From NCBI RefSeq assembly GCF_028330985.1, contig NZ_JAQMUE010000079.1, forward strand, positions 62,001 through 126,000: 64,000 bases of DNA. The letters are read 5' to 3'. The stretch comes from Roseofilum reptotaenium CS-1145. Lineage in GTDB: Bacteria > Cyanobacteriota > Cyanobacteriia > Cyanobacteriales > Desertifilaceae. Under the pieces are notes generated by a model. It was not told the origin of the DNA. It did not search any database and saw only the letters and a list, made by a program, of their open reading frames with translations. Both the position numbers and the translations under genes were made by a program. Position 1 is the stretch's first letter. Each line of letters starts with the position of its first letter. Of the stretch, positions 19,768-58,775 are shown in pieces.

Positions 19768-20856
19768 TTAGTAAGCTGTTGGAATCAGAGAGGCTTTAGT
19801 TAGTTTGGATAAGTTTACTGAGTCTAACAACTCTGTCCATTCTGCCACCAATTCAGGATTCGTGGGATCAACCACTTGTAAAGCTGCGAGGATAGCAGCA
19901 CAGTCATACCAGACTCCATTCTCTGCGAGGATTGAGGACTGCTGTAAACGGGTTTTGCCTTCGAGCGATCGCGCCAACTGAGAACTTGGAGCAATTCTTT
20001 TCACCAAACCATCAACAAACGGAGTGTTGGGAGATAATCCTGGCTCCAACTTAAGGGCAAAATACCACTGATAGAGTTTACCCACTTCCAATCCAGGTGC
20101 ATCTTCAGGAAGTTGAATGGCAAGAATTCCACCTTTTCCAGAGACCGGAATTGACGTAGTGTACAGAAGAGTTTTGTCCTCATCTTTGAGAGAAAAGATT
20201 CCTTCTCCTCCTGGGGACTCAGGCACATAAACCAAAATCATAGGATGGCTTGATAGAGTCGTACCGTAGAAATTCTCGGGTAACACGGCCACCATAGCTG
20301 ATTGCTCAAGATAGTTCTGCTCACTGCGAGCTGCGCCCCCTGCTGCTTGACTGGGAGAACTATTATCTGAAGGAGGAATAAAACTACCTCTTGATGCACC
20401 CCCTGCTGCCTGGCTTGGAGCGCTATTATCTGAAGGAGGAGTAAAGCTCTGGCGAGATGCTCCTCCCGTGGATTGACTGGGTGCGCTATTGTCTGAAGGA
20501 GGTAAGAAACTACTCCTTGATGCTCCTCCCGTGGATTGACTGGGTGCGCTATTGTCTGAAGGAGGTAAAAAACTACTCCTCGATGCTCCTCCTGTGGATT
20601 GACTGGGCGCGCTATTGTCTGAAGGAGGTAAGAAATGGCTCCTTGATGCTCCTCCGGTTGATTGATTGGGTGCGCTATTGTCTGAAGGAGGTAGAAAACT
20701 GCTCCTCGATGCTCCTCCTGTGGATTGACTGGGCGCACTATTATCTGAAGGAGGGATAAACATAGCAGCTTGAACCGTTTCTATTTCTATCGAGAGCGTC
20801 ACGATCGTCACTAGAGACAAGCTTGCTGCTTGTATAGCGTGTTTCTTAAGTTTCAT
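19768..20856 (-). CDS. DUF928 secreted protein with seven 21-residue repeats
   Basis: A 362-aa protein with an N-terminal signal-like segment (KKHAIQAASLSLVTIVTLSI). It then carries seven tandem 21-residue repeats of the form FxPPSDNSAPSQSTGGASRS (about residues 32-178). A C-terminal DUF928 domain follows, with VAVLPENFYGTTLSSHPMIL and GILAIQLPEDAPGLEVGKLY. DUF928 proteins are cyanobacterial and of unknown biochemical function. It lies in the same direction as the CHASE2 kinase and is divergent from the CHAT gene. The repeats are low-complexity, hydrophilic and probably disordered; near identity at DNA level points to recent copy-number change. Confidence 0.82.
   Translation of the reverse strand: MKLKKHAIQAASLSLVTIVTLSIEIETVQAAMFIPPSDNSAPSQSTGGASRSSFLPPSDNSAPNQSTGGASRSHFLPPSDNSAPSQSTGGASRSSFLPPSDNSAPSQSTGGASRSSFLPPSDNSAPSQSTGGASRQSFTPPSDNSAPSQAAGGASRGSFIPPSDNSSPSQAAGGAARSEQNYLEQSAMVAVLPENFYGTTLSSHPMILVYVPESPGGEGIFSLKDEDKTLLYTTSIPVSGKGGILAIQLPEDAPGLEVGKLYQWYFALKLEPGLSPNTPFVDGLVKRIAPSSQLARSLEGKTRLQQSSILAENGVWYDCAAILAALQVVDPTNPELVAEWTELLDSVNLSKLTKASLIPTAY
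20322..20763 (-). repeat. Tandem 63-bp coding repeat (seven units)
   Basis: Seven in-frame 63-bp units inside the DUF928 gene. The middle units share long identical stretches such as 'gtggattgactgggtgcgct'. The two units nearest the DUF928 domain are more diverged (AAGGASRG instead of STGGASRS). Confidence 0.85.
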
Positions 20857-39655: not shown

Positions 39656-41308
39656 TTAATTAAATGATAATGATGGAGAAGGAATGATTTGCGCTCGTTC
39701 GACTAATTCAGGAAAGAGGGCGCTAAATTCTTGTTCGGCTTGCTTTTGAGCGAGTAAGGTCATGAGAGTGGTATAGGAAAAGAAACAGATTCCGGCTAAG
39801 TTGCGATCGCGCACTTCTTGAGCTTCCTGTTTAATTTGCAGTAGAGATGTATTCTGAGTCGATAGACCGAGACTGACGGGAATTTTATGTTTCGCTAGGG
39901 CGATCGCCGGATGCTCTAAGGAAGGTTTAGAGTCTGAGTAAACAATGAGTTCTTCAATAACCTTATCGGTTGCCCAAAGTTGGGGATCTTGGAGCGTATC
40001 GGTACGGTGAAGATCGGCGACAAAGCTGAGAATACAGTAGGGTTTTTGCGCTTTGATGCGGACAGAAATCTGTTTGAGGAAGTCTGTGAGGCAATCGCGT
40101 CTCCATTTCACCCAGGCTGGATCTTGGGGGTTAGAAGGGGGCTGTTTTCCGGAATGGTCTTGCTGATAGAGTTGCTTGGTAACGGCATCATAGCCTAATT
40201 CAACGGGCGGACAGAAGGAGGAGTCGAGTTGAATGCCTTCAATTTCATACTGACTGACCATTTCTCCCACTAAATTGAGGATAAAGGCTTGTACTTCGGG
40301 ATGGAAGGGGTTAAGCCAAACATAACTGGATTCTCCTGTGCCAAATTGGACTCCATCTTGACGGGTAGCGATCCAATGGCGACGGTTTTCGAGTAAGGGA
40401 GAGTTCGCGGGAAGTTTCAGCCCTCCTTGCCACCAGCCAATGATGCTGATCCGGTTGCGCCCAGAGGCTTTGAGTAATTCTGTTAGGGGATCGTCAGAGG
40501 GTTGAGCAACTCTTGTAAGCTGTTGCAGCAGGGGGCTGGGGTAGGGCGTTTGACCCTGATTCCATAGACTGGGATAGAAAGTATTGAAATTAAATTGGGA
40601 TAAATAGTCGATCGCCGTTTCCGTATTGTTGGGAAAGAAGTGCGAGTTGGGACTCAGTTGGGTTAACCAAAGTCCCCGCAGTTCTCCGGTAAGCTGAACT
40701 GGGGGCGCAAGGTTGACTTTAGCAATATATTGATCGGGAACTGGAGAGACACTATTCCCCGTTTGTAGGGCTTGGGCAATCATAGCGGCAATTTCGGCGC
40801 GGGTGGCGATCTCATCGGGACGCAGTTGGTTCACATCCGGATAGTTGATGACCAATTCATGTTCCGCAGCAGCGGCGATCGCCAATCTAGCATATTCGGG
40901 AATGCGATCGGCATCCTCAAAGGTTTCGTTTAAGGTCATCTCCACCAAGTTTTGTGGTTCATAGTTTAAGCCATTACTTAAAGCCAGTAAGGCTTGCAGA
41001 CGGGAGAGCCGATCCGTTGGCTGAAAGCGTTGATTGGGAAAACCGCGCAGAAATCCCGATGCATAGGCACGGCGAATTACCCCATATGCCCAATAGGAAG
41101 GAGGTACATCCCTGAATTCAACTCCAGTTTGTCCCGTTTTCGGATGATGGGGAAAGGCGCGGGAGAGTACAGCCGCAAATTCTGCCCGGTTCATGGGTGC
41201 ATCGGGCTTAAATTGACCATTGAGATAGCCGCTAAAAATCTTTTGATCCGCCAGTTGTTCAATGACCGCTTGGGCCCAATGGTTTGTAATATCAGTGAAT
41301 TTAGCCAT
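39656..41308 (-). CDS. SLH-domain protein with GHL10-type glycoside-hydrolase-like domain
   Basis: A 550-aa protein. It starts with three SLH modules (about 1-60, 66-125 and 130-185: FTDITNHWAQAVIEQLADQK, NRAEFAAVLSRAF and TRAEIAAMIAQAL). A TIM-barrel domain like GHL10/DUF187 hydrolases follows (from about 207), with ELRGLWLTQLSPNSHFFPNN, then SYVWLNPFHPEVQAFILNLV and IEGIQLDSSFCPPVELGYDA. SLH modules normally bind cell-wall polymers, but no signal peptide is visible at this start, which is odd. The first residues already belong to SLH 1. The upstream DNA is the twin small-RNA region. Confidence 0.82.
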   Translation of the reverse strand: MAKFTDITNHWAQAVIEQLADQKIFSGYLNGQFKPDAPMNRAEFAAVLSRAFPHHPKTGQTGVEFRDVPPSYWAYGVIRRAYASGFLRGFPNQRFQPTDRLSRLQALLALSNGLNYEPQNLVEMTLNETFEDADRIPEYARLAIAAAAEHELVINYPDVNQLRPDEIATRAEIAAMIAQALQTGNSVSPVPDQYIAKVNLAPPVQLTGELRGLWLTQLSPNSHFFPNNTETAIDYLSQFNFNTFYPSLWNQGQTPYPSPLLQQLTRVAQPSDDPLTELLKASGRNRISIIGWWQGGLKLPANSPLLENRRHWIATRQDGVQFGTGESSYVWLNPFHPEVQAFILNLVGEMVSQYEIEGIQLDSSFCPPVELGYDAVTKQLYQQDHSGKQPPSNPQDPAWVKWRRDCLTDFLKQISVRIKAQKPYCILSFVADLHRTDTLQDPQLWATDKVIEELIVYSDSKPSLEHPAIALAKHKIPVSLGLSTQNTSLLQIKQEAQEVRDRNLAGICFFSYTTLMTLLAQKQAEQEFSALFPELVERAQIIPSPSLSFN

Positions 41309-41401
41309 AAACGGTTGCCCTCAGATTGAGGTTGATGTAACAGTAAATCATTATATTTGTAATCAGATACTTTTTCTTGCGTAAAGTTTAGTTGCAATAG
41401 C

Positions 41402-41430
41402 TTGATCTGACCCCAACAAATGTTTATAGT
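41402..41430 (+). promoter_or_regulatory. Promoter of twin unit copy 1
   Basis: TTGATC (41402-41407), a 17-nt spacer, then TATAGT (41425-41430). Both boxes are identical in copy 2, while 7 of the 17 spacer bases differ. Confidence 0.7.
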
Positions 41431-41436
41431 AAAAAC

Positions 41437-41502
41437 ATGAAGCAAGTAAAGCTTCGCTGGCAGATTAACAGCCATTTTGTACACAACCCAATTAAAAGTT
41501 AA
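41437..41502 (+). CDS. Possible leaderless 21-residue peptide, copy 1
   Basis: An ATG lies 7 nt after the -10 box, about where transcription should begin, so an mRNA would be leaderless. The 21-codon frame encodes MKQVKLRWQINSHFVHNPIK plus S. Copy 2 differs by one base, giving a Lys-to-Arg change. No ribosome-binding site can exist. Conservation could equally be due to RNA structure. Confidence 0.4.
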   Translation: MKQVKLRWQINSHFVHNPIKS

Positions 41503-41764
41503 GAGGTAAATCGCTGATTAACTGTTGTCTGTCTCAAGATAGCACGGCAGCACCCCTACTGAAACTTGAAACTTCCTAAACTGAAATAGCAGGGAGAAAA
41601 ATCAACCGGTATTCACGCCCATTTTGGTGAAGAGAGTTGAACTCCAGATAGGCTCAAATAATGAAAGGAAGTTACTCAGGAAGTAAGTCATCCGGGTGCT
41701 GTTGTCGTTTTAAAGGAAATAGTTTTGAACGGGAATTTATTGAGTAAAGTTTAGTTACAATCAC

Positions 41765-41793
41765 TTGATCTGAGTTGAAGAAGTCTTTATAGT
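41765..41793 (+). promoter_or_regulatory. Promoter of twin unit copy 2
   Basis: TTGATC (41765-41770), a 17-nt spacer, then TATAGT (41788-41793), at the same relative position as in copy 1. Confidence 0.7.
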
Positions 41794-41799
41794 AAAAGC

Positions 41800-41865
41800 A
41801 TGAAGCAAGTAAAGCTTCGCTGGCAGATTAACAGCCATTTTGTACACAACCCAATTAGAAGTTAA
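41800..41865 (+). CDS. Possible leaderless 21-residue peptide, copy 2
   Basis: Same frame and distance from the -10 box as in copy 1, encoding MKQVKLRWQINSHFVHNPIR plus S. One base differs in 66. Confidence 0.4.
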   Translation: MKQVKLRWQINSHFVHNPIRS

Positions 41866-42108
41866 GAGGTAAATCGCTGACTAACTGTTATCTGTCTCAA
41901 GAGAGTACGGCAGCACCCCCACTAAAACTTGAAACTTCCTAAACTGAAGTAGCAGGGAGGGAAATCAACCGGTATTCACGCCCCTTTTAGTGAAGAAAGT
42001 TGGACTCCAAATAGGCTCAAATAATACAGGGAAGTCACTCAGGAAGTAAGTCATCCGGGTGCTGTTGTCGTTTTAAATGAATTCTTCAGAATAAATAACG
42101 TCTGCTCC

Positions 42109-42816
42109 CTACTCCCCACTCCCTTTTTTGGGCTTATTACGACTAGAAAACCGCTGTAATTGCTGAGATCCTTCTTGGAAATGGATCAGGGTCGTCACGA
42201 TCGCGATCGCCCCATAAACCCCGCGCAACAACCATCCTTGAACGGCAAAGACCCAATCGAGCCATTGGGCGCGATCGCCGAGGAAACCGGCTAAAAGCGA
42301 CTTTAAGCGGCTATCTTCGGCTTCTAATTGGTTAAGGCGATCGATTTGGGTGGGTAGAATGGGAAATTTAGCCGTATAGAGATAAAAGCCTAACATCCCT
42401 GTTTTTCCAGTTTTCTCTTCCAGAAACGCATCCGTTTTTTGCACAATTTCCCCAGACGATAACTGGGTATTTTCGGCAATATCATTGAGCCAGTTGTTAT
42501 AGCGAACTACTGTGGGAATGCTGAGAATAAAGGGAATAGTGGGAATGAGTAAGACTAGACTCACTTGTTTGCGAATACGAGGGGGTAAAAAAATGGTGGA
42601 GAGTCCAAAACCCAAGCCTAAAATGGCAAAGGAAATCAAGTTAGACAGTTCGCTCAAGTCTAACATGCGAAAAATATCGCCAATGATCGGTAGGGAATAG
42701 ATATGCTGATCGGCCAGAAAAATAAACAGTAATTTACTTAAGACGACTAAACTGATCACTAAAGGAACGATCAGGATATAAAGGACAATTCGGAAAAGAA
42801 GTTTTAACCGATCCAT
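42109..42816 (-). CDS. Integral membrane protein of unknown function
   Basis: A 235-aa protein with four or five membrane segments: KLLFRIVLYILIVPLVISLV, ISFAILGLGFGLSTIFLPPR, VSLVLLIPTIPFILSI and RGVYGAIAIVTTLIHF. A soluble helical loop lies between the third and last (about 115-195). I do not recognise the family. The frame extends upstream into tlyA, but the Met at 42816 begins just before the first helix; the 19 extra residues are not convincing. It lies directly after tlyA on the same strand (26-bp gap), so the two are probably cotranscribed. Confidence 0.65.
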   Translation of the reverse strand: MDRLKLLFRIVLYILIVPLVISLVVLSKLLFIFLADQHIYSLPIIGDIFRMLDLSELSNLISFAILGLGFGLSTIFLPPRIRKQVSLVLLIPTIPFILSIPTVVRYNNWLNDIAENTQLSSGEIVQKTDAFLEEKTGKTGMLGFYLYTAKFPILPTQIDRLNQLEAEDSRLKSLLAGFLGDRAQWLDWVFAVQGWLLRGVYGAIAIVTTLIHFQEGSQQLQRFSSRNKPKKGSGE

Positions 42817-42842
42817 GGGAGTGGGGGTAAGGAGTTCAAGAT

Positions 42843-43661
42843 TCAGAAAGCATTTTTTGCTGCTAGGGTGCATTGATCAATCATAGACAAATCTAGTCCC
42901 CCACAGCTATCGGGATCTTCTGAAGCCATGTGTAACCAGAGCAGATATTCAATGTTTCCCGCTGGCCCGGTGATGGGAGAATGAGTTAAGCCTCGATAGG
43001 ACCATCCCAGACTACACGCGCTTTGGTAAACTGTGGCGATCGCCTGACTATGGTCTTTGGGATCGCGGACGACTCCCTTTTTACCAACCCGCGATCGCCC
43101 AACTTCAAACTGGGGTTTGACCAATGCAACTAACTCCCTGGGAGGAGCTAACAATGCCCATAAGGCCGGTAACACTTTTGTTAAAGAAATAAAAGACACA
43201 TCAACTACTAATAGGGTTGCGGGGTCTTCCCCACTATATAACTCTTCGGGACTCAAATAGCGTAAATTGGTTCTCTCTTTCAAAATCACCCTCGGATCGG
43301 TGCGAATACGCCAATCTACTTGGCCATATCCCACATCCACCCCGTAAACCTGTTTTACGCCATTTTGCAGTAAACAGTCCGTAAACCCTCCGGTGGAAAT
43401 GCCGCCATCGAGGGCAATTCGTCCAGCAACATTTAAGTGAAAATAGTGAAGAGCATGGGCTAACTTTTCTCCTCCTCTAGAGACAAAGGGCGATCGCTCC
43501 TTAACCGTTAGGGTTGCCTCCGTAGAAACCAACGTCCCGGGTTTATCCATCACCACCCGATCCACCATCACCTCACCCGCACGGATCAAGCGTTGGGCTA
43601 GTTGTCGAGAGTCACACAGAGACTGTTCTACCAGTAAAATATCGAGTCGTTGTTTAGCCAA
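42843..43661 (-). CDS. tlyA: TlyA-family rRNA methyltransferase/hemolysin-like protein
   Basis: A 272-aa protein with an N-terminal S4 RNA-binding domain (QRLDILLVEQSLCDSRQLAQ, then RLIRAGEVMV) and an FtsJ-type methyltransferase. The SAM motif is IALDGGISTGGFTDCLLQNG, followed by VYGVDVGYGQVDWRIR, LLVVDVSFISLTKVLPAL and LVKPQFEVGRSRVGKKG. TlyA proteins 2'-O-methylate ribosomal RNA; the hemolysin name is historical. The Gly-rich site reads GGISTGG where many relatives have GASTGG, a tolerated change. Normal length and complete. Confidence 0.9.
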   Translation of the reverse strand: MAKQRLDILLVEQSLCDSRQLAQRLIRAGEVMVDRVVMDKPGTLVSTEATLTVKERSPFVSRGGEKLAHALHYFHLNVAGRIALDGGISTGGFTDCLLQNGVKQVYGVDVGYGQVDWRIRTDPRVILKERTNLRYLSPEELYSGEDPATLLVVDVSFISLTKVLPALWALLAPPRELVALVKPQFEVGRSRVGKKGVVRDPKDHSQAIATVYQSACSLGWSYRGLTHSPITGPAGNIEYLLWLHMASEDPDSCGGLDLSMIDQCTLAAKNAF

Positions 43662-51707: not shown

Positions 51708-54700
51708 CTATTTTTTGTCTTCGGGATCGACGCGAACCGTGACAAAGAGGGTTTTAGGATCGCCTCCAGGTTTGATTTGAGTTTTAGCACTCAAGGTTTG
51801 TTGGGGGCCACCCTCATCGGTTTCTTGCCCAGAGCCTTTCATTTTGGTCGTTTTAGCTTTTTGCGATTTTACGGGTGCAGTGGTCGTTGGGGGTCTCTCT
51901 GAGGTCGTTCCTGAGGGACCTTCTTGAGTCTCTTGAGAGGATTTTTTCTTGGTTTTTGTCTTGTCAGGGGTGGGATCTGGGGCTGGGGTTTCTGTGGGAA
52001 TTTCTGTGGGGGTGTCTTGTTCAGTAACCGTTTCTTGCTGTTGTTTGGGGCCGCTCATTTTAGCCATTTTTTTGAGCATGTCTTCGATTTTTTTCTGGGC
52101 AACGGCTCTAGGATTTCCTTGGGCCAGGACTTTATATTCAAAGCTTTGACCAACGGCAGCGAAGCCAACAACTTTGACCAGATCGAGGTCAAATTTGAGG
52201 GTCACTTCGGCCAGTTTTTTCTGCACCACTTCGGGGCTGGGGTCTTGACGGACAATGGTTTCGATATGTTTGGCAATCAGGGTGCGGGTAAATTCGGGAA
52301 TGCCCGGTTCCTCGCCTGCTGCAACGGCTTGCATTTTCTGTTTTTTAGCTTTTATTGTAGTGCGTTTGACTCTCACAAATACTTCTAGGCGACCTTTCTT
52401 TTTGTCAATGTCTTTGTAAACATCAACATCAGTTTTAGTGCGAGAGCGAGCTTCGTGGAGCTTTATGGCTGTACCGACGGCAACCACTCCAACAGCGGTG
52501 GCTGTGCGTTGAAAGTCCGAGCTGCCTTCTTCACTCTCATCACTATCATCTTTTTTGCGCTGGATAAGGGTGAAGTTATTCCCATGACTGGCTAGGGGTT
52601 TGGGGGGTGGCCCGTCTCCTTGGCGCTGTACGAGGCGGTCGGGGAAGAAGGGAGTACGCTGGACTTGGGGTTTATCACCCGACTGTTGAACGACGTGGGT
52701 GAGTTCGTGGGCGAGTAAATGACCTCCAGAGGGGGTGTCGGGACGATACGTGTTTTTACGGAAATAGATGTCTTTTCCAGTGGTGAAGGCTTGGGCGTTG
52801 AGGGAGCGACTGAGTCGATCTCCTTCACTGTTGCGGTGAATTCTGACTCCACTAAAGTCTACCCCAAAGGCGTGTTCCATGGGTTGGCGCACGGGTTCGC
52901 TCAAGGGTTCGCCCCGACCTTGCGATCGCTGAATGGCCTGTTCCAGATTCCCCTGAATGGGCGCATTGAGGAGTTTTCCGGGGGCAGCTTTGCGACTCGC
53001 TTCCGTTTCTTCCTTGGGCACCTGGGCGACAATTTCATACTCTACCTCACGGGCGAGGCGATCGAAAATCCCCGTTTTATTATTCAATTCAATTGAGGTT
53101 AAATCATACTGTTGTTTCAACTTGGGTAAAACTGGCCTGATTTTGTCCGGGTCTTTATCTTTACGGGCCCTTTTCTCCAAGTCCCGACCCAAATTGGGTA
53201 AAACATCCGATTCATCCATCAATTTGGCTTTGAGAACAAACTCATTACTGACCGAATCATCTTCCACAATCAGCTTATTTTTCTTATCTTTCCACTTATC
53301 TGTCTTCCGTTGCACTGTACCACTGCTTGTGCTGGTCTTAGAAATTTTTTCTTTCTTGATCGTTCCAACCAGTTTATACTCATTCCAATCAAAGAACCCT
53401 TGTTTAACTTTGAGACTACCAACCGTGGCAAACTCTTTACCTTGTTCTATCGATTGTTCGAGTCCGCCTAGCCCTTGTTTGACCTCCTTGGGATTGCGTT
53501 CCGTTTTAATTAACCGTTCGCCGCTGGTTTCCCCCTCGGAAACCATGTCCTTGACTTCATCTTTTTGCTGCTCTAGTTTGCGCTTATATTCTGCTTCTTG
53601 GCGCTTGCGTTCCCGGTCTTCTTCTGTTTCCTCTTTATCGCTCTTAAACGCACTTTTGACTCTCTCTTTAGTCGATTCATACTTTTCTTTCACCTTAGCC
53701 TTGACTGACTCATACTTCTCTTTCACCTTGGCTTTAGCCGCCTCATATTTTTCCTTCGCCTTGGCTTTTAACTCATCAATTTTTTTCTTGATGGGAGCAA
53801 CCACAGTTTGGAATAGCTTCTCTAATTTTCTGCGGAAAAATCCGGTAATTTTTTCTAGAATACCACGAATCTTGTTAACAATACCTCCCAGACCAATCAG
53901 ACTTGCCATGAATCCCAAGGCAATGGGAATAATCCGAGCCAAAGCCATTTCCACGGACAGAGAGAAGGTTGCCGTGTCTCCATTGGCGATCGCCGTCATT
54001 CCCGCAAAAATCGTTTTAATTAACTCAACCACCTGTTCATAGTTCTGGGCAAACCAAATAATTACATCGACAATCGCTTTAATGATTTTCACAATTCCGG
54101 CGGCTGGATTCAAAATCCCAATCAACCAAGTGGTTGCCGCTTTAATTACTTCAATGCTTGCCATAATGGTCAGTTCTTTGATGAACTCCATTTTCATCTC
54201 ATTAAAGATATCTATCAGGAATGACCAGGCTTTGCCAATACCATCTTTAACCAAGGTATAAAACAACTGAACCACCATGCCCACTTTTTCATCTAAACCG
54301 GCAATTATTCCCTCAATATCGGCTCCTTCGATCGCGCTCCGAATTGCACCAATCAGGTCGCTGCCAAAAACGCCAGACGCTACGTCAAAAATCGAGTCAA
54401 CGGTTAGACCCATGATCTGCATGAAGATCTGGAAAAAGCCTTGAATATCAAATTTTTTCGGCAGTGTAATCGGGCCAAGATTACCAAATAGCCACTCAAC
54501 CATCCCATTGAGGAAGTGTTTGGGGAAATTCTTAGCGAAATTGAGAAAACCATCTTTGAGTCCGGTAAATAGATTTTTCATAAATCCACCGGGGTCTTCA
54601 ATAATGGCATCTAAAATCGAGGTATCAATGCCAAACTTGGATAGTATCCACTTGATGGGAGCCAATAGGGCTTTGATAATGGCGATCATTAAATCCCCAA

Positions 54701-57700
54701 TAAAAGCGAGGGCTTTCTTGACTAATCCTTCATTGGCAGCTTTGAGTGCTTCAATGCGGTCATCAATTTCTTGCAGACCTTGCTTGTAGTTCTCGGTGAT
54801 ATCATTAATTAAGTTGTCTTGATAAGCTTTAACGTTATTTTCTAAACCATCAAACTGTCCTTTAATATTCGCGATCGCACCTTCCGCCAGTTGCTTTTCT
54901 TCTGGCCCCAACTCATCCACGGCTGCCTGAAAATTAGTTTTTCCTTCATCAATGGCAGTTTTGGCTTCGATCATTTTCTTCTCCACAAACGGAGCAATGG
55001 GGTCGAGTTGGTCATACAACCCTTTGGTGATTTTCAGGACACTTTTAACTTCCTTCGTTTTTATGGTTGGGTTAAAGTCTCCTGTGCCACCAATGGATTG
55101 TCTTAAGAAACCGACATAGACTTCTCTGGCATCGCTATAGATCTCATTGACTTCATCAGGTAGACCGGTAAACAGTTTTTCTTTCGCCCAGAGAAAGATA
55201 TTGAAGATTTTGAATTTTTTCCAGAGAATTTTAATCTTAATACCGTGGCGATGATAGTAATAATTTTTCTGCCATTTTTTGAACGCAGCTTTTTGCACCC
55301 TTTCAAAGGCTCGACGAGCTAACTTTAAGCCGCTCTTCATGCGTGCTTGGACTCCGGCATCCATTTCCGCCAGGATACCATTTACTTTGGCTTGGGATTC
55401 TTCGTAAATCTTATTCAGTTTGGCGGTAATTTTGAGGCGAGCCGCTTCATTTGCACCCTTGGTTTCTTGTTTTTTGGTGGTCATATCGACCATGGTTTGG
55501 GTGCGAACGCCTTTTTGTTGCTCTTTGGTCTGTTGGGCTTTTTCCTTGTTCTTGGTTTTCGTCTGGGTGAGGGTTCCCTGTTCCTCTTCGCGAAACTTTT
55601 CGGGCCCTTTTTCGCTAAAGTCTTTGGACTCTTTCAAGCTATCGATCGCCTTATCGCCCCCCATATCCCCGAAGGTTTCCATGTTCTCGGTGGTCAGGGT
55701 AATCTCTCTATTGGGCTGCTCGATGGTTTGGGGTTCAACAGAATTTTTGCGCTGGATGATCCACTGGGGCGATCGCTGGATCATCTCAGCTAAGGATTTT
55801 GCCCGCATCACATGGGGATCGACGGTTCGCTCTAGTTTGGCCTGCTTTAACTTATTTCGTTTTGGCTCAACTTCCGGCTGCACTTTCGGCTGCGGATCGC
55901 TTTGGCGATCGCCCATTTGCATCACCCGATCCGCCATCGAGTCCGCTTCCTTCTCGTACTTATCTTGAGGCCCTCCAACCCTCAACTTCGGTTGAATGGG
56001 GCCAAAGGTATCTTCTAAATTCTCCGTTTGCTCCTTCAACGGCTCTTCAACATCCTTGTTAGAAGTCTTTGGTGGAACTGCGAGTTCTGGATTCACCGGC
56101 GGCTCATCAACCGCTATCTTGTCCTCGACAGGCGGCATTTCCTTAACGATTTTGGGCGTTTCCACCGTAGGATCGGGAGGCACTTGGGTAGACTCCGGCA
56201 TCCCTCCTCCCGCTTTTGTCGTCGCCCCTCCTACCTCATCTTTAACGGTTCCCTCAACTTCCGATCCGACTCCACCCCCACCTTCAACATCTTTCATGTT
56301 CTTGGGTTCTTCAATACCCAATGCGGCTAAAAGTTGTTGCACAAAGGCTTCGCGATCGAACGTTTCCGGGTCTAAACTCGATGAAGTGTCCGTTTTCTTC
56401 CCCTTCGCATCCCGGTCTTGTTTATTCGGGTCAACCACCGATTCCTGGGTTTCCACCACTTCCTTTTGCGGATCGTCATGGCTCGAAAACTGGTCGCCCT
56501 GTTGTTCAATTTGTTGCTTAACGGCATTAAAGGCCGGATTTTGCATCGGGTCGCTAAAATCACCCTGATCCGAAGAAACCTGTGGCACCATAATCGGCAT
56601 CGGAGGCCCTTGCACTGGAGGTTGCAGGCCCTGTTCTAGTTCATCTTTAATATCGGGTGTCGTTAACTCACTCTCATCCTTCGGGGTGACATCTTCTTGC
56701 TGATTTTCCTTATCCTTCCCTTCCTTGTCTCCCTCTTCCTTCCCTTGCTCGTCTTTCTTGCCTTTCTCTACATCTTTTTCTGTCTTTTCTGCCCTCTTAG
56801 CCAGTTTTTCCCGTTCATTTTCATCCATGTCCTCTTCAGTGATCTCAGTCTTCTGCTCTACTGGCGTTGTACTGGTATCTTTGTTTTCGGTTTCATCTTC
56901 CGTGTCTTGATCGTCTGCTTTCTGAACATCCGGCTGAGTTTTCACACTGGGGCCCGTTTGTTGAATGGTGTGGGTGAGTTCGTGGGCCAGTAAATGTTTC
57001 CCACTGGTAGAACCGGGGTTATATTGTCCAGAATTAAAATAAATATCTTTCTTGTGGGTAAAGGCTTTGGCTCCTAGGTCTTTGTTCATTTGCACCGCAT
57101 CGCTGTCGGTATGCACCCGAACCCCACTAAAGTCATTATTAAAGCGGGATTCCATGAAGCCTTTGGTCTCTGTGGGTAAGGAGGAACCGCCCCCTTCTTT
57201 ACTCTTGATTTTGCTTTCTATGCCACTACTGGCCTGAAATGACCCATCGCTATCGGCTTGCACAGTAGCGGGTGAATCATTGATTTCTACAGGGGATTCA
57301 ATGGCTGGGTTAGGTTCGGGTTTGAGAGTAATATTAACATTCTGTTCATCGGTATTCACTTGTGGAAATTGAGGCTCTGGGGGTGGTGCAGGAGACTCTT
57401 CTGCCTCCTCTTCCCGTTTCAGAGTGATATTAACGTTCTGTTCGTCTTCGCTTTCTTCTTGGTTACCTAATATGGCTGCATAGGGTATGGCTTTGGTGCG
57501 ACGACGGTTGGGGCGACCATTGATCCGTTGCAGGGTTTCCGGGGAAGATTGTAGGGTGGTGTTATCGGGTTGTTGTTCGGGTTCTTCGTCTCGCTGTACT
57601 GGAGTAGAAGCCTTCATGACTCGATCGGCCATGAGATCGGCTTCTTGTTCGTAGCGATCGCCTGGCGCACCGACTATCAGTTCAGGTTGGATCTTAATGC

Positions 57701-58775
57701 TCTTTCCTGGTGTTCGTTGAATTCTAGCTGCCAATGGTTTTAAGTTAACATCTATCCCACTGTATTCTTCCTTCGGTTGTACCTTAGGGGTGAGGGGTTT
57801 TAGGTTAACGTCAATTCCATTCCCCTCACTTTCTGGTTTCTGTTGAATTTGTTTCGGCAGCGGTTTGAGGTTAACATCGATACCACTGTACTCTTGTTTC
57901 GGTTGCACATTACTGCCCAGGGGTTTGAGGTTAACATCAATGCCACTCATGGATGTTTTACGCTGAATCTGACCCTCTAAAGGCTTTAAATTCACTTCAA
58001 TCCCCTTAGCTGTTTGTTTTCGTTGAATCTTTTGGGCTAAGGGTTTACGTTTAATTGGCTTCTCGGTTGTTGATTGGGCAGTTTCCGAAGAGATTTTATT
58101 CGATTTAGTCGTTTTTTGATCGACTTTTTTGGGCTTGAGTTTCGCCCCTTTTTGCTGAATAGTATGGGTTAATTCGTGGGCTAAAAGCCGTTTCCCACTC
58201 GTTGAACCTGGGTTATATTGCCCAGAATTAAAGTAAATATCGTGACCGTGGGTAAAGGCTTTGGCTTGCAGGTCTTGGCTTAACTGGACGGCTGTGCTAT
58301 CGGTATGGATTCGCACTTGGCCAAAATCATTGCCAAAGCGATCTTCCATAAACGATCGCGTCCCATTGGGTAAGGGTTGTCCTTTTCCCCGTTTGGCTTG
58401 AATCCGTTTTTCTACTGTTTGACTGGTCTCGAATGTTCCATCTTGCCGCAATTTATGTCGGTCTTCATCCTCGGTTTGAGATTGCAACAAAGCCGGATTA
58501 ATTTTCCTGGGAGCTACATCAATTTGACTAAATTGATACCCTAGGGGAGATAGCGTGGGGCGATCGCCTGTCCCCTGATAGTTTAGCACTGGACTTTTCC
58601 CCTGCTCGTTAGGAGGCGGCTCGCTCATCGCCGTCATTTGTACAGTCGCACTCTCAGTATCGGTTTCCAGTAAGGGAATATGCTCAGTAAAGGGTTTCGG
58701 TGTAGGGAGAGCATTTTTGGCCGGAACTGCGGGAGTGGGAGTGACCGGAACTTGGGTTTTTGTTTTAGTTGCCAT
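51708..58775 (-). CDS. Giant protein with three eCIS-core (DUF4157) domains
   Basis: A 2355-aa protein. Three DUF4157 (eCIS-core) domains each carry a zinc-protease-like HELTH motif: about residue 201 (GKRLLAHELTHTIQQ), 600 (GKHLLAHELTHTIQQ) and 2022 (GGHLLAHELTHVVQQ). Each follows the family block VRIHTDS/RNS...AKAFT...DIYF. DUF4157 is found in proteins linked to extracellular contractile injection systems and polymorphic toxins. Between domains 1 and 2 are repeats of GIDVNLKPL. Long acidic disordered regions and a coiled coil follow. A hydrophobic helical region (about 1340-1660, for example LMIAIIKALLAPIKWILSKF) lies before a Lys-rich coiled coil. No injection-system genes are in the window. 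It may be cargo, a secreted toxin or a scaffold. Confidence 0.85.
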   Translation of the reverse strand: MATKTKTQVPVTPTPAVPAKNALPTPKPFTEHIPLLETDTESATVQMTAMSEPPPNEQGKSPVLNYQGTGDRPTLSPLGYQFSQIDVAPRKINPALLQSQTEDEDRHKLRQDGTFETSQTVEKRIQAKRGKGQPLPNGTRSFMEDRFGNDFGQVRIHTDSTAVQLSQDLQAKAFTHGHDIYFNSGQYNPGSTSGKRLLAHELTHTIQQKGAKLKPKKVDQKTTKSNKISSETAQSTTEKPIKRKPLAQKIQRKQTAKGIEVNLKPLEGQIQRKTSMSGIDVNLKPLGSNVQPKQEYSGIDVNLKPLPKQIQQKPESEGNGIDVNLKPLTPKVQPKEEYSGIDVNLKPLAARIQRTPGKSIKIQPELIVGAPGDRYEQEADLMADRVMKASTPVQRDEEPEQQPDNTTLQSSPETLQRINGRPNRRRTKAIPYAAILGNQEESEDEQNVNITLKREEEAEESPAPPPEPQFPQVNTDEQNVNITLKPEPNPAIESPVEINDSPATVQADSDGSFQASSGIESKIKSKEGGGSSLPTETKGFMESRFNNDFSGVRVHTDSDAVQMNKDLGAKAFTHKKDIYFNSGQYNPGSTSGKHLLAHELTHTIQQTGPSVKTQPDVQKADDQDTEDETENKDTSTTPVEQKTEITEEDMDENEREKLAKRAEKTEKDVEKGKKDEQGKEEGDKEGKDKENQQEDVTPKDESELTTPDIKDELEQGLQPPVQGPPMPIMVPQVSSDQGDFSDPMQNPAFNAVKQQIEQQGDQFSSHDDPQKEVVETQESVVDPNKQDRDAKGKKTDTSSSLDPETFDREAFVQQLLAALGIEEPKNMKDVEGGGGVGSEVEGTVKDEVGGATTKAGGGMPESTQVPPDPTVETPKIVKEMPPVEDKIAVDEPPVNPELAVPPKTSNKDVEEPLKEQTENLEDTFGPIQPKLRVGGPQDKYEKEADSMADRVMQMGDRQSDPQPKVQPEVEPKRNKLKQAKLERTVDPHVMRAKSLAEMIQRSPQWIIQRKNSVEPQTIEQPNREITLTTENMETFGDMGGDKAIDSLKESKDFSEKGPEKFREEEQGTLTQTKTKNKEKAQQTKEQQKGVRTQTMVDMTTKKQETKGANEAARLKITAKLNKIYEESQAKVNGILAEMDAGVQARMKSGLKLARRAFERVQKAAFKKWQKNYYYHRHGIKIKILWKKFKIFNIFLWAKEKLFTGLPDEVNEIYSDAREVYVGFLRQSIGGTGDFNPTIKTKEVKSVLKITKGLYDQLDPIAPFVEKKMIEAKTAIDEGKTNFQAAVDELGPEEKQLAEGAIANIKGQFDGLENNVKAYQDNLINDITENYKQGLQEIDDRIEALKAANEGLVKKALAFIGDLMIAIIKALLAPIKWILSKFGIDTSILDAIIEDPGGFMKNLFTGLKDGFLNFAKNFPKHFLNGMVEWLFGNLGPITLPKKFDIQGFFQIFMQIMGLTVDSIFDVASGVFGSDLIGAIRSAIEGADIEGIIAGLDEKVGMVVQLFYTLVKDGIGKAWSFLIDIFNEMKMEFIKELTIMASIEVIKAATTWLIGILNPAAGIVKIIKAIVDVIIWFAQNYEQVVELIKTIFAGMTAIANGDTATFSLSVEMALARIIPIALGFMASLIGLGGIVNKIRGILEKITGFFRRKLEKLFQTVVAPIKKKIDELKAKAKEKYEAAKAKVKEKYESVKAKVKEKYESTKERVKSAFKSDKEETEEDRERKRQEAEYKRKLEQQKDEVKDMVSEGETSGERLIKTERNPKEVKQGLGGLEQSIEQGKEFATVGSLKVKQGFFDWNEYKLVGTIKKEKISKTSTSSGTVQRKTDKWKDKKNKLIVEDDSVSNEFVLKAKLMDESDVLPNLGRDLEKRARKDKDPDKIRPVLPKLKQQYDLTSIELNNKTGIFDRLAREVEYEIVAQVPKEETEASRKAAPGKLLNAPIQGNLEQAIQRSQGRGEPLSEPVRQPMEHAFGVDFSGVRIHRNSEGDRLSRSLNAQAFTTGKDIYFRKNTYRPDTPSGGHLLAHELTHVVQQSGDKPQVQRTPFFPDRLVQRQGDGPPPKPLASHGNNFTLIQRKKDDSDESEEGSSDFQRTATAVGVVAVGTAIKLHEARSRTKTDVDVYKDIDKKKGRLEVFVRVKRTTIKAKKQKMQAVAAGEEPGIPEFTRTLIAKHIETIVRQDPSPEVVQKKLAEVTLKFDLDLVKVVGFAAVGQSFEYKVLAQGNPRAVAQKKIEDMLKKMAKMSGPKQQQETVTEQDTPTEIPTETPAPDPTPDKTKTKKKSSQETQEGPSGTTSERPPTTTAPVKSQKAKTTKMKGSGQETDEGGPQQTLSAKTQIKPGGDPKTLFVTVRVDPEDKK
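57730..58035 (-). repeat. Coding repeats (GIDVNLKPL) within the giant gene
   Basis: Six units of the form GI(D/E)VNLKPL separated by 12-18 residue linkers rich in Gln/Pro/Lys lie between the first and second HELTH domains. A weaker echo (DEQNVNITLK) occurs twice further on, near 57330 and 57430. Confidence 0.8.

What the first reader, a model, noticed from the sequence alone, without database searches (positions are those of the whole stretch)
41381..42077. Tandem twin transcription units of an unrecognised small RNA
Two 334-bp units repeat with an exact 363-bp period. In both, a -35 (TTGATC) and -10 (TATAGT) box stay identical at 17-nt spacing while 7 of 17 spacer bases have changed. That is the pattern of selection on a promoter. 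The downstream body has conserved stems and no long reading frame. I know of no cyanobacterial RNA family that fits.
Basis: partly seen in the sequence, partly recalled or inferred. Interest (0 to 1): 0.8.

Follow-up and report, generated by a model that had tools for sequence, protein, structure and literature searches.

The report
Twin genes for new cyanobacterial RNA
The repeat is a pair of genes for a roughly 277-letter RNA, apparently not made into protein, whose folded shape has been kept by evolution in hundreds of cyanobacteria, yet it matches no family in the main public RNA catalogue and its job is unknown.

Summary
The window carries two tandem copies (period 363, 90% identical) of a structured RNA gene with its own promoter. 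No Rfam family matches. A covariance model of the 5' domain finds relatives in 150 of 388 genomes of the class, one match in 128 of those 150. Across 93 diverse copies a named structure pairs in 92.5% of cells and 36 of 52 pairs carry double changes (shuffles 19.9). The own genome has a third, diverged copy upstream of a gene for an uncharacterised 256-aa protein. That gene lies downstream of the RNA in 68 of 99 genomes checked, but 27 of 150 RNA-bearing genomes lack it and unlinked copies show no orientation preference. Best reading: a stand-alone, trans-acting structured RNA, duplicated in tandem in several lineages. Target and protein partner are unknown; transcription was not testable here.

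The parts
41381..41397 (+). Copy 1 upstream promoter element GTAAAGTTTAGTTGCAA (about -56 to -40 from the RNA start)
   Evidence: TAAA[CG]TTT lies at -54 to -58 in 117 of 156 family upstream regions (one more at -63); background 0.023 per 110 nt. Exact matches to GTAAASTTTRNTTNCAA in the own genome only at the two window copies.
41402..41430 (+). Copy 1 -35 (TTGATC) and -10 (TATAGT), 17-nt spacer
   Evidence: the TTGAT of the -35 box is kept in the 12 congener copies but not family-wide
41437..41714 (+). Copy 1 RNA, about 277 nt (start and end inferred)
   Evidence: member of A5, 93 sequences; R1 match 129.6 bits
41439..41455 (+). Copy 1 hairpin P1 GAAGC/GCUUC
   Evidence: 98.9% of cells paired but no double change among 93; GGAGC/GCUCC in L203, read by eye
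41459..41533 (+). Copy 1 P2 domain: GGCAGAU (41459-41465) pairs with GUCUGUC (41527-41533)
   Evidence: 99.5% of cells paired; 5 of 7 pairs never vary
41501..41510 (+). Copy 1 conserved unpaired loop AAGAGGUAAA
   Evidence: the eight bases AGAGGUAA (41502-41509) are each 90% or more conserved across 93 copies
41545..41704 (+). Copy 1 rod domain closed by P3 (41545-41557 with 41692-41704)
   Evidence: 13 of 13 P3 pairs carry double changes across the family
41708..41714 (+). Copy 1 3' tail TTTTAAA
   Evidence: T is 64-76% at each of the first four bases after P3 over 156 copies
41744..41760 (+). Copy 2 upstream promoter element GTAAAGTTTAGTTACAA
41765..41793 (+). Copy 2 -35 (TTGATC) and -10 (TATAGT), 17-nt spacer
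41800..42077 (+). Copy 2 RNA, about 277 nt (start and end inferred)
   Evidence: R1 match 126.9 bits; 363 bp downstream of copy 1

Best explanation
The region holds two tandem genes, each with its own promoter, of a structured non-coding RNA of about 277 nt, from a family spread through much of the window's bacterial class and absent from Rfam. Shown by sequence comparison: the family, its structure (5' hairpin P1; a sequence-invariant helix P2 whose loop shows AAGAGGUAAA; a rod closed by P3), its promoter element, its copy number, and its persistence without the neighbouring gene. Inferred: an unidentified activator at the element near -55 plus an extended -10 drives transcription; P3 and the U-rich tail end the transcript; the folded RNA acts in trans, its rod a stable scaffold and its invariant 5' domain the recognition surface for a protein or for target RNAs; tandem copies raise dosage. 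The third copy in this genome, upstream of the 256-aa protein gene, is probably the older locus, and that gene may be expressed by read-through.
For: R1 matches 150 of 388 class genomes, 81 of 160 genera, and 186 of 217 genomes, 53 of 56 genera, of one large family. Structure: 92.5% of cells paired; 36 of 52 pairs with double changes against 19.9 shuffled, 0 of 500 as high; slid controls, which keep relatedness, 39-47% paired. Fixed promoter element. No coding signal: longest stop-free frame averages 43.5 codons against 46.6 shuffled over 160 copies. Stand-alone: of 41 copies without the companion gene and with enough flank, the next downstream ORF is on the same strand in 22 and opposite in 19; in the window the next long ORF, 42109-42873, runs convergently. 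RNA is found without the protein in 27 of 150 genomes. Tandem copies at spacings of 350-593 in 8 of 104 locus-strands, repeats removed, and at 311 in L013.
Against: No transcript was seen; no expression data for this organism could be reached. P1 and P2 show no double change among the 93 aligned copies; their pairing rests on conservation and one outside case. The structure was derived with RNAalifold from the same alignment, and the shuffle control does not keep relatedness. Folding energy of copy 2 alone is unremarkable (z -1.21). In the P3 shuffle control 38 of 160 copies do not exceed the highest shuffled score. The linkage to one gene (68 of 99) is not explained by a purely independent RNA. 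No target or protein partner was identified.
Confidence: 0.78

Rival explanations
1. It is a cis-acting 5' leader (riboswitch or attenuator) of the 256-aa protein gene, and the window twins are displaced relics or decoys.
For: Gene downstream on the same strand within 2 kb in 68 of 99 genomes with both positions listed; gap from RNA 3' end to ATG 21-81 nt in 26 of 40 measured loci, 105-370 in the other 14, often leaving little room for a separate promoter; the own genome keeps this arrangement on contig C44.
Against: 41 copies away from the gene show no orientation preference (22 against 19). Neighbour clustering found no other gene recurring next to the RNA; one broad cluster in 42 loci, median about 2.4 kb upstream and on both strands, was not followed up. 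RNA is found in 27 genomes without the protein, for example G333 at 89.7 bits. The window twins keep promoter and structure with no sense gene next to them.
Confidence: 0.1
2. It is the RNA partner of the 256-aa protein: an RNA that binds, inhibits or guides a DNPH1/TIR-like nucleotide-cleaving domain.
Confidence: 0.12
3. It is a mobile repeat without function as RNA.
For: Tandem and dispersed copies exist.
Against: Three copies in the own genome at E 0.001; no match in viral contigs by exact pattern or in plasmids by blastn; compensatory changes and fixed promoter spacing.
Confidence: 0.01
4. It has already been recorded as an unnamed entry in a cyanobacterial start-site or sRNA list, such as one of the Northern-verified Nostoc sp. 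PCC 7120 sRNAs 268249f (340 nt) or 2462444f (258 nt).
For: Sizes and spread among heterocystous strains are in the right range (PMC4734099, parts 1, 3 and 4 of 6 read).
Against: No sequence link could be made; anchoring on the Yfr1 motif in four related genomes gave no consistent coordinate; the paper's table lists these two as found only in heterocystous strains, whereas this RNA is found in others too.
Confidence: 0.2

Closest known systems
Yfr2 family of cyanobacterial ncRNAs
   Same: Widely conserved cyanobacterial RNA, several copies per genome, some stand-alone and some just upstream of a gene with possible read-through (PMC2662882, passages)
   Different: Yfr2a is about 80 nt with one long stem and a 12-nt loop; this RNA is about 277 nt with a two-domain fold; sequence motifs were not compared directly
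6S RNA (RF00013)
   Same: Long rod-like domain with internal loops (recalled for 6S)
   Different: No Rfam match in the window; the genome's own 6S lies elsewhere (C83, 93.7 bits)
NsiR1 of heterocystous cyanobacteria
   Same: Tandemly repeated sRNA genes
   Different: Array of 12 short repeats upstream of hetF (PMC3610870, passage); here mostly 2-3 copies of a unit of about 360 bp
DNPH1 / MilB / TIR superfamily (companion protein only)
   Different: Extra N-terminal domain of about 97 residues; no Pfam or NCBIfam match above cut-off and no PDB sequence match at E 1; flavodoxin-like folds score equally

Membership tests
Any Rfam 15 family | Score at or above the gathering threshold | tested here: not met
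   0 matches in the window; best sub-threshold match in the region E 1
6S RNA | RF00013 covariance match | tested here: not met
   no match in the window; one match in the genome, on another contig
tmRNA | ARAGORN tmRNA call with tag peptide | tested here: not met
   0 genes in the window
Yfr2 | About 80 nt, single long stem with 12-nt loop | tested here: not met
   description
cis-regulatory leader | Copies lie upstream of, and in sense with, a regulated gene | tested here: not met
   22 same-strand against 19 opposite among 41 unlinked copies; met for the linked copies (68 of 99 genomes)
Type III toxin-antitoxin RNA | Short internal tandem repeats (definition recalled), always with the toxin gene | tested here: not met
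   no repeat of 12 nt or more within a unit reported; 27 of 150 RNA genomes lack the linked gene
Stand-alone structured ncRNA | Covarying secondary structure without coding potential | tested here: met
Stand-alone structured ncRNA | Discrete transcript | not testable with these tools
   no expression data
Nostoc 7120 sRNA 268249f or 2462444f | Same sequence | tested here: inconclusive

The most novel reading that the evidence does not exclude
A class-wide cyanobacterial RNA that forms an RNP, with its invariant 5' domain recognised by a dedicated protein, and that controls nucleotide or NAD metabolism through the linked DNPH1/TIR-like protein: an RNA-governed N-glycosidase system of a kind I know of no description of.
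Probability: 0.1. Interest if true: 0.92.

Novelty: new variant of a known kind. Interest (0 to 1): 0.74.

Why it matters
From general knowledge, structured bacterial RNAs of nearly 300 nt that are conserved over much of a class are few, and several have proved to have major roles. A promoter element with no visible wider regulon and a linked uncharacterised protein give two concrete handles on function.

Tried and rejected
Rejected: 6S, tmRNA, any Rfam family, a mobile repeat and a pure cis leader, on the evidence given above.

Led nowhere: plasmid blastn, no match. PADLOC, Pfam and NCBIfam on the companion protein gave only weak sub-cut-off matches (best E 0.0081). The own-genome scan for the promoter element with up to 2 mismatches gave 75 matches against 66 for the reversed control, so no wider regulon is visible. 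A resemblance of the element to HLR1/RpaB sites was considered from memory and is too weak to claim. Anchoring on the Yfr1 motif to place Nostoc 7120 coordinates gave no consistent result. The N-terminal domain of the companion protein was sent for folding, but the job had not finished when I stopped (accepted; asked for). Clustering of flanking genes found the companion gene in 50 loci, a broad cluster in 42 loci at a median of about 2.4 kb upstream on both strands, not followed up, and smaller clusters of 18 loci or fewer.

Rows dropped: L088 and L157 (chance pattern hits outside cyanobacteria), identical copies (160 left), L014 and L112 (P3 search failed), then 158 reduced to 93 by redundancy; 156 upstream regions were usable. 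The P3 shuffle control used 60 of 160 rows: 46 of 60 exceed the highest shuffled score, as do 122 of all 160.

Literature: the claim of absence in print rests on searches only (open-access full text; supplements not readable here). PMC4734099 parts 1, 3 and 4 of 6 read; PMC2662882, PMC6202907 and PMC3610870 seen as passages; all others as listings.

Full report
Observation. The window is G000:C79:62001-126000 of a cyanobacterial genome (no name is given; its congener G001 has a contig of the same length as one of 'Cyanobacteria bacterium UBA2566'). Two units of period 363 lie at 41373-42081, 90% identical without indels.

Family. By blastn 15 of 59 relatives match. An HMM of 12 strong copies extended this to other families. 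R1, a covariance model of the 5' domain built from 18 sequences, matched 150 of 388 genomes of the class and 81 of 160 genera, with one match in 128 of the 150; 186 of 217 genomes and 53 of 56 genera of one family; and 62 of 244 in a phylum-wide draw, all 62 of the same class or nearer, though how many of the 244 lie outside the class is not shown. These searches ran with strict filters that lose weak matches. The others seen are cyanobacteria, including Nostoc, Fischerella, Calothrix, Microcoleus, Spirulina subsalsa, Crocosphaera, Cyanothece, Microcystis and Acaryochloris. The viral scan with the same exact pattern was empty. Rfam has nothing at its thresholds and nothing better than E 1 below them.

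Structure. On 93 diverse copies (A5) I named 52 pairs in 8 helices, taken from an RNAalifold fold of the same alignment with P3 lengthened by one pair and a few isolated pairs left out. 92.5% of cells pair; 36 pairs have changes on both sides (shuffles 19.9, none of 500 as high); sliding the partners drops pairing to 39-47%. P3 covaries in 13 of 13 pairs and P4 (columns 219-226 with 376-383) in 8 of 8. The fold_alignment tool finds P1, P2, P3 and P4 with 21 of 33 pairs doubly changed. P1 and P2 are instead nearly invariant in sequence, with no double change; L203 shows GGAGC/GCUCC in P1, read by eye. The loop AGAGGUAA is at least 90% conserved at each base. There is no coding signal. Folded alone, copy 1 gives z -2.39 and copy 2 z -1.21.

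Promoter. In 118 of 156 upstream regions TAAA[CG]TTT occurs within 110 nt, in 117 of them at -54 to -58 from P1; the background is 0.023 per 110 nt. The consensus read from that table is GTAAASTTTRGTTRCAA, followed by an extended -10 (about TGnTAAnnT). In the own genome exact matches to the element occur only at the twins, and the third copy has one with two mismatches. T is 64-76% at each of the four bases after P3.

Copy number. The own genome has three copies: the twins and C44:69892-70003. Its congeners G001 to G005 have 3, 3, 1, 3 and 4. In the tree of window-type copies, G000 copy 1 groups with G001 copy 1 (support 88/94) and copy 2 with copy 2 (98/98), so the duplication predates that split; 6 of 9 inner forks are open. 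Tandem pairs recur in other lineages.

Mechanism. Shown by comparison: a conserved structured RNA with a dedicated promoter, not tied to one neighbour. Inferred: transcription by an unknown activator; trans action through the invariant 5' domain; dosage by tandem copies. Not shown: transcription in this organism, partner, target.

Verdict. It is a new RNA family by the database and paper searches made here, with the caution that unnamed entries in transcriptome supplements could not be checked.

Noticed in passing
L061:1498-2265 (G000:C44:68897-69661), outside the window: Uncharacterised 256-aa cyanobacterial protein family (starts MAIIALKAWYL), no Pfam or NCBIfam match above cut-off, C-terminal domain of the DNPH1/TIR/flavodoxin-like fold; N-terminal domain not resolved.
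   Followed up: partly
L046 (G226), L034 (G333), L042 (G375): Relatives where the companion gene matches in two frames (L046) or is not found at E 1e-20 (G333, G375) while the RNA is kept.
   Followed up: partly
window 20347-20760: 63-bp tandem repeats, 6.6 copies.
   Followed up: no
window 51708-58775: Very long minus-strand ORF, 2355 aa, with a 33-bp repeat at 53666-53768.
   Followed up: no
window 39656-41308: Divergent neighbour of copy 1 encodes a protein with SLH and GHL10 (glycosyl-hydrolase-like) domains.
   Followed up: no
loci L083-L199: A broad cluster of related ORFs in 42 loci, median about 2.4 kb upstream of the RNA and on both strands; may be a chained superfamily.
   Followed up: no
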